Below are positions 1,392 through 64,000 of a stretch of 64,000 bases of DNA, one piece after another. The stretch lies in assembly GCF_003071065.1 (NCBI RefSeq), contig NZ_QCXX01000001.1, forward strand, positions 1,447,556-1,511,555, given 5' to 3'. This stretch comes from Sphingobacterium athyrii (lineage in GTDB: Bacteria > Bacteroidota > Bacteroidia > Sphingobacteriales > Sphingobacteriaceae). Made by a program: the position numbers and the translations under genes. Position 1 is the first letter of the stretch. Each line of letters starts with the position of its first letter. The notes below the pieces were generated by a model, which saw nothing but the letters and a program-made list of their open reading frames with translations, searched no databases and was not told the origin of the DNA.

Positions 1392-1715
1392 ATGCAGATG
1401 GATTTTAAACTTAGGTATCTTTTGAGCGGAAGCATCTTATTAATCGTAGGTCTTGTGCTATTTTCCTGTTCTGTTAAAAAGAATGACGAGAATTTGATCT
1501 GGTATGAAAATCAGGTCATTGAACAGGTCGTCCCTGATCAGGATTCAGTTTACAGGATACAGATCGGTATGATGGCCGCTTCTTTTTGGTTAGACACCAA
1601 AAATGGTGAACGAAAAGATGAGTTAAGCCTTTTACAAAAGAGTTTAAAGCAACGAAATAAGCTGACCATTGGCGTAGAACAAGGGACCAATAGAATCATT
1701 CGTGTTGATAAATAG
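1392..1715 (+). CDS. Small hypothetical lipoprotein
   Basis: This encodes 107 residues with a hydrophobic N-terminal segment (about 10-25) ending in a lipobox-like LFSC, so it is probably a lipid-anchored envelope protein with lipidated Cys26. The remainder is short, charged and without a motif I recognise. It is flanked by about 170 bp without a gene upstream and faces the minus-strand monooxygenase gene downstream. I cannot assign a function. The lipobox and codon-like composition support a real gene. Confidence 0.6.
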   Translation: MQMDFKLRYLLSGSILLIVGLVLFSCSVKKNDENLIWYENQVIEQVVPDQDSVYRIQIGMMAASFWLDTKNGERKDELSLLQKSLKQRNKLTIGVEQGTNRIIRVDK

Positions 1716-8250: not shown

Positions 8251-11200
8251 ATGAATTTAATCCGTTTTGCCTTACGTAAGCCGATATCCATTCTTGTACT
8301 GGTCATGGGACTTATTGTATTTGGAATAGGCGCAGTACGCACCATCAAGGTAGACATTTTACCCAAAATGAACCTTCCTGTTATTTATATTGCGCACCCC
8401 TTTGGGGGTTATTCTCCAGATCAGATGGAGTCTTATTTTGCCAAAAACTACGTCAATATCCTACTTTTTGCCAATGGCGTCAAATCCATTGAGACCAAAA
8501 ACATCCAGGGGCTGACCTTAATGAAGATCTCCTACTACGAAGACACCAATATGGCACAAGCAGCGGCGGAATTGAGCGCACTCGCCAATAGGATCCAGGC
8601 CTCCTTTCCTCCGGGATCACAACCGCCCTTTATTATCCGGTTTGACGCGTCTTCACTCCCTGTAGGGCAGCTTGTACTCAGCAGTGATAAACGTTCCAAC
8701 AACGAACTACAGGATCTGGCCAATGTGTATGTTCGGGCTTCATTTACCTCCATACCGGGATTACTTTCCCCGCCACCATTTGGGGGCAGTCCCCGTACCA
8801 TCGAGGTCAATGTAGATCCCGATCTGATGCGCAGTCACAACATGACCCCCGATCAGGTCGTCGAAGCATTAAAACTCAACAACCAGACCGCACCTGCCGG
8901 AAATGTCCGTATAAAAGATAAAAACTATATTACGCCCACCAACAACACCATTCGGGATGTAAAAGATTTTGAGAAAATCCCGCTTTTTAAAGGCGGAGTA
9001 CAAAATCTCTATCTGGGCGATATTGCCACGGTGAAAGACGGCGCCGATGTTACCGCAGGTTATGCGCTCGTCAATGGCAAACGATCGGTCTACGTCAGTA
9101 TTGCCAAAGCCGGTGATGCTTCCACTTGGGAAGTCGTACAAAATCTGAAAGCCGCACTTCCAAAAATACAGAATACCTTGCCCGAGGATGTAAAACTATC
9201 CTATGAGTTTGACCAATCCGTTTATGTCATCAACTCCGTCAAAAGTTTGATTACCGAAGGCGCTATCGGAGCAATACTCACTGGTCTGATGGTCTTATTA
9301 TTTTTGGGCGACCGTAGAGCAGCTTTAATCGTTATTTTAACAATCCCAATCTCTGTTATTTCGGGCGTGCTCTTCCTGAAACTATTTGGACAGACGATCA
9401 ATCTAATGTCACTGAGTGGATTGGCACTGGCAATCGGTATCCTCGTTGACGAGAGTACAGTCACGATAGAGAATATACACCAACACCTGGATATGGGCAA
9501 ACCAAAAGCATTGGCCATCTGGGATGCCTGTAAGGAAATTGCCTTGCCAAAGCTGCTGATTTTACTCTGTATCCTCGCTGTATTCGCTCCGGCTTTTACA
9601 ATGACAGGTATTCCCGGATCCTTATTTTTACCACTGGCTTTGTCCATCGGATTTTCGATGATTATCTCCTTTCTGCTGTCACAGACTTTCGTACCGATCA
9701 TGGCCAACTGGCTCATGAAAGATCACCACAAAACCGGTGCACATAAAATAAATCCAAAAGGACTGAATCCGGATGAAGTTCAATTTGCCGAAACAGGTCT
9801 ATCCGTTGAATCCGAACAAGATACCCTGAATCAAAAGAAACTTCTTGTTGAACGGGAAGATTTTAACAACGATGGCAAGATCAGCCTGTTTGAACGATTC
9901 AGAAATCGGTTTATGAAAATGATCGACCGACTGTTCAAGCAGAAGAAAATTATCACCGTCGTCTACCTGGTGGGTGCCATAAGTCTGGTCCTCGTTTTGC
10001 TCAATACGATTGGACAGGACGTATTTCCAAAGGTCAATTCGAGCCAATTTCAGATGCGTCTGCGTGCCGTCGAAGGCACCCGCATTGAACGTACCGAAGA
10101 AAAGGCCAAACGCGCATTAGCTGAGCTTGAACAACTGGTCGGTAAAGAACACATTAGCATATCCTCTGTTTATATTGGTCAACACCCCGGGCAATTCTCC
10201 GTATCACCGATCTACCTGTTTATGGCAGGTCCCCATGAAGCCGTTTTTCAAATCGCCCTCAAAGATTATCACCACGATATGGACAGTTTCCGCGACGAAT
10301 ACAGAAAGCGACTCAAGGCCGCTCTTCCTGATGTGCAGGTTTCTTTTGAACCGATCGAACTCACCGACAAAGTCCTGAGTCAAGGTTCGCCGACACCGAT
10401 CGAGGTGCGAATTGCCGGCAAGAACAAAAAAAATAATGAAAAATATGCAGGCAAATTAATCGAAGAACTGAAAGCTATTCCCTATTTCAGGGATGTGCAG
10501 CTGGCGCAATCCATCAAATACCCGTCCTATGACATCAATATTGACCGGGTACGTGCCGCTCAGCTAGGTATTGACCTTGCAGAAGTGACCCGATCATTGA
10601 TCGCGGCAACATCGTCCTCCCGTTATACCGAGAAAAATACCTGGATTGATGAAAAAGCGGGGCTATCCTACAATGTGCAAGTACAGGTTCCCATTGATAA
10701 AATGAAAGACGAGAAAGAGATTGGAGAAATTCCATTGTTAAAAAATTCGTCAAGGCCAATACTGAGCGATATTGCAACCATTACGCCATCTTATACTTAT
10801 GGCGAGAACGACAACCTAGGTGCCATGCCCTACATTTCTGTCACCGCCAATATCGACCATACGGATCTGAAAACAGCCTCCAATGATGTACAACGTAGTA
10901 TTAAAGCTTTGGGCGAACTTCCACGCGGTCTTTCAGTGGAGCAAATCGGGTTGGGAAAAGTATTAAATGAAACTATGGATAGCCTACAGGCAGGTCTGGC
11001 GGTAGCAATTATTGTGATATTTCTGATGCTTTCGGCCAACTTTCAGTCATTTAAAGTTTCTATGGTCGTCCTCACCACTGTCCCAGCCGTTGTCCTTGGA
11101 TCCCTGCTGATGCTTTTATTGACCGGTTCAACGCTCAACCTACAGTCTTATATGGGTATTATTATGTCTGTTGGTGTATCCATTGCCAATGCGGTGCTGC

Positions 11201-58977: not shown

Positions 58978-59086
58978 AATCTATACTATTCTATACTACT
59001 ATACAATAGTAAAAACATTTTCCGACATCCACAAATATTTTTTCAAATAATGGCATTATAGCTATTCGGCCGAACGGCCGTTAGCT
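58978..59086 (-). promoter_or_regulatory. Promoter/operator region of the utilisation locus
   Basis: On the minus strand, TTTG (59035-59032) and TACTATTG (59011-59004) are 20 bases apart, a good Bacteroidota promoter with one mismatch. Just downstream, CTATACTATT and CTATACTACT repeat in tandem (58982-59001), a possible operator for the GntR regulator. Upstream, a GC-rich dyad with two CGGCCG blocks inside flanking AGCTA/TAGCT arms (about 59059-59086) looks like an activator site. Confidence 0.5.
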
Positions 59087-59108
59087 GTGTGGAGTTATGG
59101 AAAAAATA

Positions 59109-59148
59109 AAGCGGGATATATTATCATGACTGATAATATATCCCGCTT
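59109..59148 (-). terminator. Perfect 18-bp stem-loop terminator
   Basis: AAGCGGGATATATTATCA (59109-59126) pairs exactly with its complement at 59131-59148 over a TGAC loop. On the minus strand it is followed by TTTATTTTTT. It isolates the SusC promoter from transcription of the gene at 59196-59501. Confidence 0.8.
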
Positions 59149-59181
59149 AGTAAATAATTTAAAAAATTTTGATCACAAAAA

Positions 59182-59203
59182 AAGGTAGGCCTAGCCTACC
59201 CTT
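59182..59203. terminator. Small stem-loop at gene end
   Basis: GGTAGGC and GCCTACC pair over a CTA loop (59184-59200), with AAAA and TTTT on the two sides. It overlaps the stop codon of the minus-strand gene at 59196. Confidence 0.55.
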
Positions 59204-59501
59204 TTGTCAATGAGTGGTGATATTTTAAGGTATTATTGAGCGAATGTGCAGTCTGTCGTGCATCGTCTTGGTAAGACGACAGATCTTCACAATTTCGAAT
59301 GTCTGCTACATCCACTTTCTTTCTTACTTTGCTGATGACCTGATTTAGCTCTGATTTCCAGTTACCCGGATCGCCAAAATCGTCCATCCAATTTTTATTG
59401 ATAAACTTTTTGTAGTTCAAAAGCAAAATATACAATTCCTCACCACTACCGGCGCGATTGATTGACGTGCGCCAGTTCTCTAATTTTTCTTTAAAACTCA
59501 T
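59196..59501 (-). CDS. Small hypothetical protein
   Basis: About 101 residues from start MSFKEKLENWRTSIN; a longer frame to 59531 adds a hydrophobic leader of ten residues that could be spurious. The product is hydrophilic and helical, with NKNWMDDFGDPGNWKSELNQ and a His-rich end. There is no known family. It is isolated by two terminators from the operon downstream. Confidence 0.55.
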   Translation of the reverse strand: MSFKEKLENWRTSINRAGSGEELYILLLNYKKFINKNWMDDFGDPGNWKSELNQVISKVRKKVDVADIRNCEDLSSYQDDARQTAHSLNNTLKYHHSLTKG

Positions 59502-59665
59502 AACCAGCAATATACAAAAAAATATGGACATTCCAAAATCGCTTCCTTTGAAATGGATGAATATTATTAAAAATTAAGCGATAGAATGATTAAACCTTCG
59601 GTGAATTATTTCGGTCATAAGGTAGAGGTTCAATATTAATATTATAATACAAAACAGAATAAATT

Positions 59666-60292
59666 ATGGTCTTTATCCACTTAAAAAATATGCTTGTTAT
59701 TTCCTTTGCATTGCTATGTATAATGGAGAAAAGTATCGCTCAACACATTGGGGACAATAAAAGACCTACGTCTCAGACGACCTTTCGGCACGACAGAGAA
59801 AATGATTATGTCAGCATAGGCAACCGGATTTTCTACAGGGATAAGATGGTCGAAGATGTCGATGCAGGATCTTTCAAAGACCTAGGTAATGCTTATGCAA
59901 GAGACAACTGGAATGCCTATTATCGGGGCATTAAGATCAAGGATGTATCGCCACATTCATTCCAATCACTTGGTTGGGGATATGCCAAGGATAGTTGGAA
60001 TGCCTATTATCGAGGTGTTAAAATTAAAGACGTCTCTGCGCCCAGCTTTAAAGTACTGGATGAGGGATACGCCAAAGATAGTTGGAATGTCTATTATAGA
60101 GGTAATCAAATAAAAGATGTATCCGCCCCAAGCTTTGTTCTTCTTGGCGACGGATACAGCAAGGATAGCTGGAAAGTCTATTATTTTGGCCGGGAGATAA
60201 AAGATGCAACTGCTTTTACATTTGAATATTTAGGCAAAGGTTATGCGAAGGATAGCTGGAATGAATACTATAGAGGAAAAAAATTAGAGTAA
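59666..60292 (+). CDS. Exported DKNYY-type repeat protein
   Basis: The 208-residue protein has a signal peptide (to about residue 26, MEKSIAQ). Five 29-residue repeats follow, each with YAKDSWNxYYRGxxIKDVS-like sequence; a sixth, degenerate unit precedes them (IGNRIFYRDKMVEDVDAGSF). This matches the DKNYY repeat family of secreted bacterial proteins, whose function is unknown; the repeats likely stack as a beta-rich rod in the periplasm or at the surface. It converges on the Cas12-like gene with one base between stop codons. Confidence 0.8.
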   Translation: MVFIHLKNMLVISFALLCIMEKSIAQHIGDNKRPTSQTTFRHDRENDYVSIGNRIFYRDKMVEDVDAGSFKDLGNAYARDNWNAYYRGIKIKDVSPHSFQSLGWGYAKDSWNAYYRGVKIKDVSAPSFKVLDEGYAKDSWNVYYRGNQIKDVSAPSFVLLGDGYSKDSWKVYYFGREIKDATAFTFEYLGKGYAKDSWNEYYRGKKLE

Positions 60293-60293
60293 T

Positions 60294-61388
60294 TTATTCG
60301 ATAATAATGTTAATGCCGACCATCTTCGCTTTGTATTTAATCTTTTCGATAAGACCGTAGTAGCTCCAGTTTCGCAACAAGAATTCATCACCTTTGGCCA
60401 TTTCCTCCTTATTGGATTGGTTGACCAGCAAGAGGGTACCCGCTTGTGCTTTCACACAAAGCTCAATTAATCTACGGCTATACAGGTGGAGTTTGGTATC
60501 TACGTAATTTTTCTCCTTTTCATTGTAGTGTTCCAAGCTTTTCATTTTCCGCTTACGTCCACGCCCACCTTTATCAAATGCGGCGGCCTTTTGCAAGCGA
60601 TGTCGCGCTGCTTGGATAGCCATACGGCGGTAAGTAAATTCCTCTTTATTGCCGATCTGAAAGGACTCCTTACCGATAGTTACCGCTATGGGATGTTCGA
60701 TGGAAAGTGATGCTTCGGCGATAACGTTATCCTTTAGTTCTTGGATTTTTTTTGGAAGCTCGAGTGCAAGAAGGAGAAAAATCTTGCCTTTGACAATTTT
60801 GATTGCGCTGCTACAGATTTTGATCTGCCCAACCAGTGCACGTTGGAGCAACACCTTTTTATCCGATCGGTCTTTACCGAGGTATGTCCGAAACGGTATT
60901 TTGAATAGTGTGAATTTAAAATCTCTATTATTCTCATCTTTACTTAAGTTAATTTGTCTACCAGAAAAGGGAATAGGCATATCCTTTTTATAATTGCGGA
61001 GCGATTTTTCACCTTTCCAGTATGAGAGGCGGTCCGCCTGAAAATACTTGATTAAGGCCGTGTTTATTTGGGACAAGATATCTGTTGGGATCCGCCCTTT
61101 GAAATAGCTGGACAGCAGGCGATAAGTTGTATTCATCCTTGAAGTATTCAATACACCTTCTGGATCTTTCGCCTGATCGGCCAGTTTGATTTTAACATCT
61201 TCCTGTAGGTAAATCAGATCTTTCAAGTTCTCCTGTACATATTGGTGGGTGATGACCATATTCGCACCACGGAAGACAAGATCCTGCCATTCAAAGAGCT
61301 GTTTAAAATACTCCGATCGTTTTTCTTTATCATCACAATCCACAAAAACCTGTATTTTGCGGGTCAATACCATTGTATCAGCTGCCAT
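60294..61388 (-). CDS. Nuclease-dead, C-terminally shortened Cas12f/TnpB-like protein
   Basis: The 364-residue protein has the helical N-terminal region of compact Cas12/TnpB proteins (YFKQLFEWQDLVFRGANMVI). A RuvC-like part follows: the segment SIEHPIAVTI at 229-238 corresponds to RuvC-I, then KGGRGRKRKMKSLEHYNEKE (273-292), YVDTKLHLYSRRLIEL (295-310) and AGTLLLVNQ (316-324) for RuvC-II, and IKYKAKMVGINIIIE at the end. At the RuvC-I position where VDLG is usual the sequence is ASLS (Asp to Ser227). At RuvC-II, LED becomes LVN (Glu to Val322). The chain stops where TnpB proteins normally go on to the zinc finger and RuvC-III Asp. It is therefore predicted to bind guide RNA and DNA but not to cut. 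It follows the sigma-factor gene by 16 bp. Confidence 0.8.
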   Translation of the reverse strand: MAADTMVLTRKIQVFVDCDDKEKRSEYFKQLFEWQDLVFRGANMVITHQYVQENLKDLIYLQEDVKIKLADQAKDPEGVLNTSRMNTTYRLLSSYFKGRIPTDILSQINTALIKYFQADRLSYWKGEKSLRNYKKDMPIPFSGRQINLSKDENNRDFKFTLFKIPFRTYLGKDRSDKKVLLQRALVGQIKICSSAIKIVKGKIFLLLALELPKKIQELKDNVIAEASLSIEHPIAVTIGKESFQIGNKEEFTYRRMAIQAARHRLQKAAAFDKGGRGRKRKMKSLEHYNEKEKNYVDTKLHLYSRRLIELCVKAQAGTLLLVNQSNKEEMAKGDEFLLRNWSYYGLIEKIKYKAKMVGINIIIE

Positions 61389-61404
61389 ATCTTTTTATAT
61401 TTAG

Positions 61405-62217
61405 TTATGCCGTTTTCTTAGCAGATTTAATTTTTGCATGTGCATTAATAAATAATTTACGCACCTGTCCCCCGTCCAATTGTAAAGCTTCTGAAATCTT
61501 GTCAAAGGAATACTGCAATTCATAGCGCATGCGGAAGACCTCAGCCTCCTCTTCGGTCATTTCGTCATTTAATTTAAATTCAACGGGTTTAGCCATCAGC
61601 TGCATTTTCTCTTCACTATGAATAATGGAACGCAGGTATTCGATTGTTTTCTCCATCTGTAGACCAACCTCATAATCTGAGATGTTCCCCATATAGTAAG
61701 CGATACGTTCATAGTTAAAACTATATTTTAGGCAAAGACGGATAAAGAGTTGTTGATCGCTGTTGAGACTAGGCAAAATGGCATTAATTTGATCCATCTT
61801 CTTTTTCTTCTCCAATTCCAGTTGTTCGATATAGAGCAGATCGGCTTCGCTTTCCTCTTCCATTTCATAGCCCAGCATAAACTCCTGATAATCCTCGATG
61901 CTATCGAGACGGAGTAAGCTTCGGTGAAATCTATTGCGCGATTTTTGATAAAAAGCCTGAATGGCAGACTTTACCTGGACTTTCAGAAACTCGAAGACCT
62001 CCGATTCGGAATGCAGATTTTCGCGGAACAGCCAAAGCCTTAGGAATGCTTCCTGCGCAATACTTTCTCCAGCACATTCATCATCTGTGGCGCGATGTGC
62101 ACGGAAAAAGAAATGTTCGTAAAATTTTTGGTAGAAAAATTTAAGTCCCTTTTCATGCCCATTGTGCAGGTGTTCAATAGCCGTTTTAATGTCCTTGTTT
62201 AGTAAAAGTAGTTTCAT
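61405..62217 (-). CDS. ECF-like sigma factor with two region-4-like domains, partner of the Cas12-like protein
   Basis: The 270-residue protein has a sigma region 2 at about 21-95 (LKFFYQKFYEHFFFRAHRAT, then ESIAQEAFLRLWLFRENLHS and FLKVQVKSAIQAFYQKSRNR), very close to FecI-like ECF factors of Bacteroidota. An acidic linker (about 105-140) precedes two region-4-like helix-turn-helix units. The first is at 141-198 (LPSLNSDQQLFIRLCLKYSF, NYERIAYYMGNIS). The second is at 216-266 (MTEEEAEVFRMRYELQYSFD, KISEALQLDGGQVRKLF). Normal ECF factors have one. No anti-sigma gene is adjacent. It is first in a two-gene operon with the Cas12-like gene and divergent from the guide array, which suggests RNA polymerase recruitment directed by guide RNA. 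Confidence 0.82.
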   Translation of the reverse strand: MKLLLLNKDIKTAIEHLHNGHEKGLKFFYQKFYEHFFFRAHRATDDECAGESIAQEAFLRLWLFRENLHSESEVFEFLKVQVKSAIQAFYQKSRNRFHRSLLRLDSIEDYQEFMLGYEMEEESEADLLYIEQLELEKKKKMDQINAILPSLNSDQQLFIRLCLKYSFNYERIAYYMGNISDYEVGLQMEKTIEYLRSIIHSEEKMQLMAKPVEFKLNDEMTEEEAEVFRMRYELQYSFDKISEALQLDGGQVRKLFINAHAKIKSAKKTA

Positions 62218-62250
62218 AATTCGTTTTTATGGTTAGCAATATATCAGCAA

Positions 62251-62373
62251 CTTACCACGGCTCCGGCGGAACTTGACGGATTTTATGAAACCGAAGCCGG
62301 GTAAGTGTAAATCGTTACATGGTTATAAAAACTTATTGGTATTGAGTGGGAAGTATTGGCGTTACGCTCTCCA
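62251..62373 (+). ncRNA. Candidate structured leader / scaffold RNA before array 1
   Basis: The 156-bp gap between the sigma gene and the first repeat holds a strong hairpin: CTTACCACGGCTCCGG (62251-62266) pairs with CCGAAGCCGGGTAAG (62291-62305), 14 pairs with one bulge and one mismatch. A smaller stem TGTAA-ATCG-TTACA follows (62306-62319). The position, just before the array and divergent from the effector operon, suits a tracrRNA-like scaffold or array leader. A convincing anti-repeat was not found by eye, so the role is inferred. Confidence 0.35.
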
Positions 62374-62671
62374 GTTGTGTATACCCTACATTTTGAAGAT
62401 ATTAACAGCTATTCCCCGCTTATATAAGCTCGATTTAAGTTGTGTATACCCTACATTTTGGGATCATCAAGATCCGACCTTATGGACATCATAAATCATC
62501 CAATGCTGTGCATACCCCACTTTTTGAGGTCATCAACATCGAGATATTTTTTCTGGACTTATGTTTTACTGTTGTGTATACCCTACTTTTTGAGGTCATC
62601 AACATCTTAGGATAGTTTTTCATTACCTATTCGCCTGTTGTGTATACCTACATTTTGAGATCATAAACCTT
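62374..62671 (+). CRISPR. CRISPR-like array 1: five repeats, four spacers
   Basis: Repeats begin at 62374, 62439, 62505, 62571 and 62637. They are 36 bases (the last 35), starting GTTGTGTATACCCTACA and ending ATCAACATC in the best copies. The 5' block TGTATACCC and the 3' block ATCA are the most conserved; single-base changes occur in nearly every copy, and the first and last are the most degenerate. Spacers are 29, 30, 30 and 30 bases (62410-62438, 62475-62504, 62541-62570, 62607-62636) and share no sequence. Orientation is inferred with the spacer 3' of the repeat, as in Cas12 guides. Confidence 0.85.
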
Positions 62672-62970
62672 CTAGTATCGTAATAATAATCAAGAACATA
62701 AAGTAGAATGTAACCCAACATTTTTTAAAAAAGGGTATTTAGTGAGTCGCCATTGCGCTCACCCTACGGCATAACAAGATACCTCAATATATATAATTTC
62801 GTAAATTTTATTACTTACTTTGCAAGCACTTCTGGAAAGATTGAGAAAATATTATTTTGTTAATTTTGGACTTTTTAACTCCTTTTAAGCCAGAGAACGT
62901 TTGAACTTGTATATCCCTTTTTTTATTTATCACTGGCAATTTCAAACCAAGTTCAGAAACGGAATTACGA
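62672..62970 (+). repeat. Array leader, copy 1 of a tandem duplication
   Basis: This 300-bp gene-free block is about 96% identical to 63663-63961 (offset 991). Conserved elements are a hairpin GTGAG-T-CGC / GCG-CTCAC (62741-62761), whose loop base differs between copies; a promoter with TTG at 62841-62843 and a perfect TAATTTTG at 62861-62868; and a later stem pairing GTTTGAACTTG (62899-62909) with CAAGTTCAGAAAC (62948-62960). The promoter reads into the following repeats, about 95 bases downstream. Confidence 0.75.
62841..62868 (+). promoter_or_regulatory. Leader promoter for array 2
   Basis: TTG (62841-62843), 17 bases, then TAATTTTG (62861-62868), a perfect match to the Bacteroidota -7 consensus TAnnTTTG. 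It is conserved in the second leader copy at 63832-63859 and points toward the repeats. Confidence 0.55.
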
Positions 62971-63655
62971 GTTGTTACCACCCCTTATTTTGAGATTACC
63001 CATATCGATGATTTATCCGATACATCCATTGATCTAGCTGTTTATATCCCACATTCTGAGATCATCAACAACCGTGGTACCATAAAACAAATATAATTGT
63101 CTATACCCCTCCTTTTTAGATCATCAACAGCATTCGACGACTCTGATTTAGTTGACTTACAGTTGTGTATACCCTACTTTTTGAGGTCATCAACATCTTA
63201 GGATAGTTTTTCATTACCTATTCGCCTGTTGTGTATACCTACATTATGGGATCATTAATATCATTGGTTGACAAAATAGTTTTTAGCTTAAGGTTGTGTA
63301 TGCCATACATTATGAGATAATCGCCTTCAAGAATTAACAAATCCGAAAAGCCCCCGTTGCATATACCCTAAATCTTGAAATCACCAACAATCTTGGCGCA
63401 CACAATCCATGGCAAGAGAAGCGTTGTACATACCCTGCTTTTTGAGGTCATCAACATCGTAAACGATTTATCTTTAAAAAAACTCACCGTTGTGTATACC
63501 CTACTTTTTAAGGTCATCAACATCCTTTTAGGTTTATAGCCGGTATAAACTAAGTTGCGTATACCCTACAATTTGAGATCATCAACATCAAATGAGAAAC
63601 TACGTGATTATTGGTGGGAGTTGTGTATACCCTACATTTTGAGATCATCAACATC
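62971..63655 (+). CRISPR. CRISPR-like array 2: eleven repeats, ten spacers
   Basis: Repeats start at 62971, 63037, 63096, 63162, 63228, 63293, 63356, 63423, 63489, 63554 and 63620, 35-37 bases each. The first (GTTGTTACCACCCCTTATTTT...) and third are strongly diverged, the last is canonical. Spacers are 30 bases in most cases, but 23 (63073-63095), 27 (63329-63355) and 29 (63525-63553) also occur. The spacer at 63198-63227 is identical to the one at 62607-62636 of array 1, and its upstream repeat is identical too. The degeneracy is unlike a conventional adapting CRISPR array. Confidence 0.85.
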
Positions 63656-63961
63656 CTACTTTCTAGTATCCTAATAATAATCAAAAACATAAAGTAGAAT
63701 GTAACCCAACATTTTTTGATAAAGGATATTCAGTGAGTCGCCATCGCGCTCACCCTACGTCATAACAAGATGCCTCAATATATATAATTTCGTAAATTTT
63801 ATTACTTACTTTGCAAGCACTTCTGGAAAGATTGAGAAAATATTGTTTTGTTAATTTTGGACTTTTTAACTCCTTTTAAGCCAGAGAACGTTTGAACTTG
63901 TATATCCCTTTTTTTATTTATCACTGGCAATTTCAAACCAAGTTCAGAAACGGAATTACGA
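63656..63961 (+). repeat. Array leader, copy 2
   Basis: Second copy of the 300-bp leader, with about ten base differences from copy 1 and no visible gap between them. The promoter TAATTTTG is at 63852-63859. Differences in the hairpin loop (CATC instead of CATT) and in the AAGGGTATTTAG region (AAGGATATTCAG here) show the copies have begun to diverge. Confidence 0.75.
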
Positions 63962-64000
63962 GTTGTTACCACCCCTTATTTTGAGATTACCCATATCGAT
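63962..64000 (+). CRISPR. Start of array 3 (cut by the window end)
   Basis: A degenerate repeat at 63962-63997 is identical to the first repeat of array 2, and the first three spacer bases also match (GAT). The third cassette therefore continues beyond the window, perhaps as a further copy of array 2. Confidence 0.7.

What the first reader, a model, noticed from the sequence alone, without database searches (positions are those of the whole stretch)
60294..64000. Candidate RNA-guided sigma factor system: dead Cas12f-like protein, ECF sigma factor and multi-guide array
A two-gene operon encodes an ECF-like sigma factor and a compact Cas12/TnpB-like protein whose RuvC-I Asp and RuvC-II Glu positions are Ser and Val and whose RuvC-III/zinc-finger end is missing. 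Divergent from it are at least 17 repeat-spacer units. No cas1/cas2, nuclease or toxin is present, so defence is unlikely. The arrangement suggests guide RNAs that direct the dead protein to DNA, where the sigma factor opens a promoter without its own consensus. I recall reports of nuclease-dead Cas12f homologues paired with sigma factors in Bacteroidota; I have not been able to verify them here.
Basis: partly seen in the sequence, partly recalled or inferred. Interest (0 to 1): 0.96.

Follow-up and report, generated by a model that had tools for sequence, protein, structure and literature searches.

The report
RNA-programmed switch for nutrient importers
A Sphingobacterium-like bacterium encodes a predicted nuclease-dead CRISPR-type protein next to a sigma factor and an array of predicted guide-RNA repeats; guides of this and related arrays match DNA upstream of predicted nutrient-importer operons and point toward them, so the system would likely use guide RNAs to choose which importers are switched on.

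Summary
The 364-aa protein matches PDB 'Nuclease-deactivated Cas12f' over its full length (E 1e-123), has Ser and Val at the RuvC-I and RuvC-II positions and stops before RuvC-III. The 270-aa neighbour matches the RpoE chain of the same PDB entry, 9n9q. So it belongs to the dCas12f-sigma RNA-guided transcription kind; the paper on it was not held here. The array is not divergent: a covarying scaffold RNA puts it on the operon's strand (176 of 176 model matches, training copies included). It runs past the window, to 24 repeats and 4 scaffolds. Guides of this and nine related arrays match sites upstream of SusC-type operons, pointing at SusC: 37 of 45 sites examined, against 8-10% expected. The own best hit is 28 of 30, before such an operon. 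Flanks fit 5'-YYR; mismatches avoid the repeat-proximal end. Of 118 guide types in 10 arrays, 93 were found in one array only; the genome has no Cas1. The new part is the hypervariable multi-guide form. Activation was not tested.

The parts
60294..61388 (-). dCas12f homologue, 364 aa; RuvC-I Asp -> S227, RuvC-II Glu -> V322, no RuvC-III/zinc finger
   Evidence: phmmer to 9n9c_A E 1.2e-123, residues 3-363; alignment to 9nzo; AlphaFold2 model pLDDT 79, best PDB matches 9n9m and 9n9c
61405..62217 (-). ECF-like sigma factor, 270 aa
   Evidence: phmmer to 9n9q_C RpoE E 1.7e-37, residues 15-265; Pfam Sigma70_r4; NCBIfam sigma70-ECF just under its cut-off; relative found beside dcas12f in 76 of 80 related loci
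62374..62671 (-). five repeats (starts 62374, 62439, 62505, 62571, 62637; 35-36 nt), each followed, reading down the minus strand, by a ~30-nt guide; RNA-sense repeat GATGTTGATGATCTCAAAATGTAGGGTATACACAAC
   Evidence: orientation
62475..62504 (-). guide ATTGGATGATTTATGATGTCCATAAGGTCG; 28 of 30 match at G000:C14:296596 (+), 5' flank TTTTG, 335 bp upstream of a thioredoxin-like ORF followed by SusC and a SusD-like ORF
62729..62788 (-). guide-RNA scaffold (tracr-like): two hairpins plus a possible anti-repeat
   Evidence: covariance model R1, 83.8 bits (a training sequence); pair counts
62971..63655 (-). eleven repeats (starts 62971, 63037, 63096, 63162, 63228, 63293, 63356, 63423, 63489, 63554, 63620) with guides; the repeat at 63620 is the first behind scaffold 2
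63720..63779 (-). second guide-RNA scaffold
   Evidence: covariance model R1, 75.6 bits (a training sequence)
63962..63997 (-). last repeat in the window; the array goes on in contig C4 (7 repeats between 89 and 1298, scaffolds at 387-446 and 1362-1421)
   Evidence: 127-base exact overlap of the contig ends; C4 repeats, C4 scaffolds

Best explanation
The locus encodes a dCas12f homologue, a sigma-factor neighbour and a co-directional array of predicted guide RNAs, and it likely works as an RNA-guided transcription activator in which guides would bring dCas12f plus sigma to sites upstream of SusC/SusD-type importer operons and so load RNA polymerase there. Shown here: homology of both proteins to chains of one solved entry, loss of the catalytic residues, a scaffold RNA with covarying hairpins on the operon's strand, and guide matches that lie upstream of SusC and point at it. 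Inferred: that the array is transcribed and processed, that the scaffold pairs with each repeat in trans, that dCas12f binds these guides, and that sigma-loaded polymerase starts transcription toward SusC. The array may be a strain-specific list of importer operons to switch on, since guides differ strongly between arrays whose effectors are 98-99% identical.
For: Proteins. Sigma relative beside dcas12f in 76 of 80 related loci. Scaffold: 96.8% of cells paired, 38 cells changed on both sides, covariation score 0.246 against 0.093 +- 0.011 shuffled, 0 of 500 shuffles as high. The model finds 176 sites in 82 sources, all on the dcas12f strand (for the 2 on C4 by the contig overlap); 77 of 80 related loci have at least one, including Allomuricauda taeanensis L111, 9 nt behind the dcas12f stop. 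Training copies are among the 176. Targets: 45 of 50 non-array hits examined in five whole genomes; 37 of 45 have a SusC plug domain within 7 kb on the same strand (35 by an HMM built here, 2 coordinates because the fetched slice ended); expected 8-10% from plug density in the own genome. Of 40 distinct guides with a match of at least 24 of 30, 37 point at SusC and 0 have one behind them. Reversed-guide control in the four relatives: 12 hits at E<=0.3, best 0.006; real guides: 42 outside the arrays (3 of them just upstream of an array), best 1e-7. Flank -2 pyrimidine in 37 of 40, -1 purine in 31 of 40; mismatches 36 in guide positions 1-13 against 68 in 14-26. Five guides match 30 of 30 outside the array in the genome that holds their own array.
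Against: Only 1 of the 19 distinct own guides has a strong match in its own genome (28 of 30); two more reach 25 and 24 of 30 in the 2.47 Mb scanned. In the other genomes too, few guides have a listed close self-match. Three of the 40 sites with at least 22 of 30 have no SusC within 7 kb, one of them a 30 of 30 self-match in S. detergens. The 45 sites are not independent: several share an operon or are orthologous. Target-to-gene distances vary widely. Two of five covariation measures do not exceed their shuffles, and the fold of one scaffold-repeat stretch is not unusually stable (z -1.39). The -1 flank base is A more often than G, while I recall a minimal 5'-G motif for the studied system. 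Control hits were not checked for nearby SusC, and many 'behind' flanks were only about 2 kb, so the 0 of 40 control is weak for those. No expression data.
Confidence: 0.82

Rival explanations
1. RNA-guided repressor: dCas12f blocks SusC operon transcription, TldR-like, and the sigma factor acts separately or as a decoy.
For: Nuclease-dead homologues (TldR) repress (passages of PMC13418256); some sites lie inside a small ORF just before the operon.
Against: The sigma gene is coupled in 76 of 80 loci and matches the RpoE chain solved in one entry with dCas12f. A roadblock would not need sites to point at SusC, yet 37 of 40 do and none was seen facing away within the fetched flanks.
Confidence: 0.1
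2. A type V-F CRISPR immune array, active or decayed, whose guides remember invaders.
For: Repeat-spacer layout, fast guide turnover, Cas12f ancestry.
Against: RuvC residues lost, no Cas1 in the genome, no phage match for 86 of 124 guides at E<=0.1, one chance-level plasmid match (E 0.5) for the 19 own guides, and hits on host SusC-type operons instead.
Confidence: 0.04
3. A relic: the array and genes are decaying and no longer regulate anything in this strain.
For: Repeats are degenerate, few own guides match the own genome, a broken second dcas12f piece lies at C16:106754.
Against: Both ORFs are open over their full length; the gene is present, sometimes only as a fragment, in 72 of 301 family genomes, and most listed copies have no internal stop; the own scaffolds keep the structure.
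Confidence: 0.07

Closest known systems
dCas12f-sigmaE RNA-guided transcription (PDB 9n9c, 9n9m, 9n9o, 9n9q; recalled work of the Sternberg and Chang groups; paper not held here)
   Same: Full-length dCas12f homology, RpoE-like partner in tandem, homologous scaffold RNA right behind dcas12f of Allomuricauda taeanensis, guide sites upstream of SusC-type operons
   Different: 24 repeats and 4 separate scaffolds in a CRISPR-like array upstream of sigma, where L111 has a single scaffold behind dcas12f; guides nearly private to each array; flank motif YYR rather than the 5'-G that I recall. Whether the original work describes such arrays I could not check.
Type V-F CRISPR-Cas (Cas12f)
   Same: Fold, repeat-spacer array, separate tracr-like scaffold, pyrimidine-rich 5' flank
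   Different: Catalytic residues and the C-terminal RuvC-III/zinc-finger part lost, no Cas1 in the genome, guides match host operons
TldR (TnpB-like nuclease-dead repressors)
   Same: Nuclease-dead relative that would be used for regulation
   Different: Cas12f rather than TnpB branch, sigma partner, many guides, sites pointing at the gene

Membership tests
dCas12f-sigmaE RNA-guided transcription | dCas12f effector homologous over its length | tested here: met
   E 1.2e-123 to 9n9c_A, residues 3-363 of 364; fold match
dCas12f-sigmaE RNA-guided transcription | RuvC active site lost | tested here: met
   S227 and V322; protein ends before RuvC-III
dCas12f-sigmaE RNA-guided transcription | adjacent RpoE-like sigma factor | tested here: met
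   E 1.7e-37 to 9n9q_C; tandem genes
dCas12f-sigmaE RNA-guided transcription | guide-RNA scaffold of the same kind at the locus | tested here: met
   model R1 finds it in the window twice and in L111 at 11108-11169, E 1.6e-9; the window copies were in the training set, L111 was not
dCas12f-sigmaE RNA-guided transcription | guides match sites upstream of SusCD (recalled) | tested here: met
   37 of 45 sites, over ten arrays and five genomes; for own guides in the own genome one strong site
dCas12f-sigmaE RNA-guided transcription | minimal 5'-G target-adjacent motif (recalled) | tested here: inconclusive
   own best site has G; over 40 guides -1 is A 21, G 10, T 6, C 3 and -2 is pyrimidine in 37
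dCas12f-sigmaE RNA-guided transcription | transcription starts at a fixed distance without promoter motif (recalled) | not testable with these tools
   needs TSS mapping
Type V-F CRISPR immunity | active RuvC nuclease | tested here: not met
   catalytic Asp and Glu replaced, C-terminal part missing
Type V-F CRISPR immunity | Cas1 adaptation protein in the genome | tested here: not met
   0 of 1, control genomes ring in 9 of 14; Cas2 not tested
Type V-F CRISPR immunity | spacers from mobile elements | tested here: inconclusive
   no phage match for 86 of 124 guides; 19 guides against plasmids give one match at E 0.5; how well the collections cover this genus was not tested
TldR repressors | TnpB-branch protein without sigma partner | tested here: not met
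   closest to dCas12f/Cas12f, sigma in tandem

The most novel reading that the evidence does not exclude
In Sphingobacterium, dCas12f-sigma has become a rewritable outer-membrane programme: a long, fast-changing guide array without Cas1 is the strain's list of which of its roughly 150 or more TonB-dependent importers are expressed, with new guides copied from importer upstream regions by a Cas1-independent route and shared across species together with the operons.
Probability: 0.35. Interest if true: 0.9.

Novelty: new variant of a known kind. Interest (0 to 1): 0.78.

Why it matters
If true, bacteria use an array of guide RNAs as a multi-target transcription programme, a natural counterpart of multiplexed CRISPR activation. 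It would give a direct handle on how Bacteroidota choose among many SusCD importers, and it raises a testable question: how a guide array can diversify without Cas1. The guide-target list makes one operon (C14:296.6 kb) testable at once in this strain, and three exact 30 of 30 sites testable in S. detergens, two of them before a SusC gene.

Tried and rejected
Plus-strand (divergent) reading of the array: rejected because the scaffolds lie on the other strand, 12 scaffold cells are G-U pairs that would be A-C on the plus strand, and the sites point at SusC only in the minus-strand reading. Immune memory: rejected. Rfam on 59000-64000: nothing at gathering level; best E 0.057, outside the array. 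Pfam gives no hit for the dCas12f protein. Literature: searches did not list the primary dCas12f-sigma paper in the held library; PMC13418256, PMC12803034 and PMC13092281 were seen only as matching passages; what I say of the primary work beyond the PDB records is recalled. C12:752604, a seed-anchored 20 of 24 match of a duplicated own guide, was left out as too weak. A guide family like TAGCTCATGGGCTACTACTG recurs in several arrays, and no site for it was listed. Left out of the 45 sites: C1:646739 (not fetched) and four hits at E 0.25-0.26 (three not fetched; G007:C2:603864 lies in a fetched stretch but was not counted); 4 hits of one guide just upstream of arrays were set aside. Five of the 45 sites match a single guide in fewer than 22 of 30 positions and are probably chance; they count as misses in 37 of 45 and are left out of 37 of 40. 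The own-genome scaffold search scored 150 of 1686 candidates.
Full report
What is there. Two genes on the minus strand, 61405-62217 and 60294-61388, form a tandem pair. Above them lie 17 repeats with a period of about 66 nt. The contig ends at the window edge; contig C4 begins with the same last 127 bases and holds 7 more repeats and 2 more scaffolds. So the array has at least 24 repeats and 4 scaffolds, if C4 follows C1 as the overlap suggests.

The effector. It matches PDB 9n9c_A, 'Nuclease-deactivated Cas12f', over residues 3-363 at E 1.2e-123; the same sequence is in 9n9m, 9n9o and 9n9q. Against active Cas12f 9nzo, the RuvC-I Asp falls on S227 and the RuvC-II Glu on V322, and the protein ends where RuvC-III and the zinc finger would follow. 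In 24 aligned homologues position 227 is Ser in 23 and Asp in one (P0098), and 322 is never Glu. An AlphaFold2 model (pLDDT 79, pTM 0.54) has 9n9m and 9n9c as its best two PDB matches. PADLOC's best match is Cas12f.

The sigma factor. It matches RpoE of 9n9q over residues 15-265 at E 1.7e-37, the entry that also holds a dCas12f chain. A relative lies beside dcas12f in 76 of 80 related loci; the call that found the loci kept the best 80 of 229. The effector, sometimes only a fragment, is in 72 of 301 genomes drawn from the family, in 7 of 25 genera.

The guide RNA and its strand. Blocks between repeats carry the motif GAGGC..GCCGTAGGGTGAG..CTCACTRAATACCC. 31 distinct copies fit two hairpins of 13 pairs: 96.8% of cells paired, 38 cells changed on both sides, covariation score above all 500 shuffles, slid controls at most 49% paired. 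Two of the five measures (pairs with a change on both sides, further pair types) do not exceed their shuffles, and the minimum-energy fold of one scaffold-repeat stretch is not unusually stable (z -1.39). Twelve cells are G-U pairs that only this strand can form. A model from these copies finds 176 sites in 82 sources, all on the dcas12f strand (for the 2 on C4 judged by the contig overlap), in 77 of 80 related loci; the training copies match by construction. Allomuricauda taeanensis, whose former name Flagellimonas I recall from the studied system, has one copy 9 nt behind the dcas12f stop. Pedobacter loci L078 and L079 have 8 and 10. In the own genome 4 were found, with 150 of 1686 candidates scored. 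The scaffold's 3' end (AATACCC) can pair with the repeat (GGGTAT). In L055 and L065, whose repeats read AAGGTAT, the scaffolds read ATACYTT, which still pairs (partly by G-U); in L056 it reads ATACCC, with one mismatch. I take this as suggestive only.

Where guides match. The best own guide (62475-62504) matches C14:296596 in 28 of 30, flank TTTTG, 335 bp before a thioredoxin-like ORF (below the Pfam cut-off) followed by SusC and a SusD-like ORF of the same direction. To gain power I used 124 distinct guides of this array and nine related ones against whole genomes: the own one (hits below E 0.5) and four relatives (E up to 0.3). Of 50 hits outside arrays I examined 45 in fetched surroundings; 4 further hits of one guide just upstream of the arrays were set aside. 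35 of 45 have a SusC plug domain within 7 kb on the same strand by an HMM built here, and two more do coordinates beyond the fetched slice. From the 150 plugs listed in the own genome (193 candidates) one expects 8-10%; the sites are not all independent, since several share an operon or are orthologous. Of sites with at least 22 of 30 matching, 37 of 40 qualify. Reversed guides give 12 hits in the four relatives, best E 0.006, against 42 outside the arrays, best E 1e-7, for the real ones; the control hits were not checked for nearby SusC. Five guides match 30 of 30 in the genome of their own array, outside the array: three in S. detergens, one each in G001 and G004; four of the five have SusC within 7 kb ahead.

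Seed and flank. For 40 guides with a site of at least 24 of 30, taken from loci chosen for guide hits, positions 1-13 next to the repeat hold 36 mismatches and 14-26 hold 68; base -2 is a pyrimidine in 37, base -1 a purine in 31. Of these 40, 37 point at SusC and none has SusC behind it, though the flank behind was often only about 2 kb. Eight own guides are among the 40, all pointing at SusC, six of them at sites in relatives and two in the own genome. In the two operons scanned in full (L233, L242), proteins carry Plug/CarbopepD_reg, SusD-like and redoxin/AhpC domains.

Guide turnover. Ten arrays, nine of them (the own one included) beside effectors 98-99% identical, hold 118 guide types, 93 of them in one array only. 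Units whose repeat fell below the scan threshold were not parsed, so some sharing may be missed; L038 and L103 share nine. No Cas1 is in the own genome, so new guides there would not come from ordinary CRISPR adaptation; how they arise is open.

How it most likely works. By homology to the solved dCas12f-gRNA and RpoE chains, guides would lead dCas12f to DNA upstream of importer operons and the sigma factor would bring RNA polymerase to start transcription toward SusC. The direction of the sites fits loading of polymerase better than blocking. Activation, processing of the array and scaffold-repeat pairing are not shown here.

Known or new. The kind is known from PDB records released in December 2025; the paper itself was not listed in the library. 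The new part is the CRISPR-like, hypervariable multi-guide array aimed at many importer operons across a genus. If the primary work already describes such arrays, this is a plain new member.

Noticed in passing
G000:C16:106754-106870 (L002 1501-1617): Decayed C-terminal piece (residues 326-364, 82% identical) of a second dCas12f copy; only about 600 bases around it were read.
   Followed up: partly
L027 (C4) 1606-1635, minus strand: Guide L039_657 of a relative matches DNA just upstream of the array scaffold here and next to the arrays of G001, G002, G004 and G005: possible self-control of the array.
   Followed up: partly
window 62343-62373, minus strand: Sequence next to the sigma gene looks like a degenerate scaffold hairpin plus anti-repeat and is similar in L037.
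   Followed up: no
window 62667-62966 and 63658-63957: 300-nt scaffold-bearing block duplicated at 96% identity, 991 bp apart; the assembly breaks at its second copy.
   Followed up: partly
L078 11108-12588, L079 5296-7074: Pedobacter loci carry 8 and 10 tandem scaffolds with short ACAAC/T-guide units, many of whose guides seem to share a GGG core: another way to encode many guides.
   Followed up: partly
L246 4279-5148 and G000:C17:204.6 kb: Guide sites lie inside a 289-aa ORF (HEPN plus nucleotidyltransferase in L246) about 1 kb upstream of a thioredoxin-like ORF.
   Followed up: no
L242 533-907, L199 small ORF at the sites: A ~124-aa ORF without a clear Pfam family (MNKLFKK../MKRILAL..) often sits directly before the targeted operons.
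   Followed up: partly
L027 (C4) 880-985: Palindromic CGTATACG repeats in an insert within the array.
   Followed up: no
window 59666-60292: DKNYY-family repeat protein beside dcas12f on the other strand.
   Followed up: no
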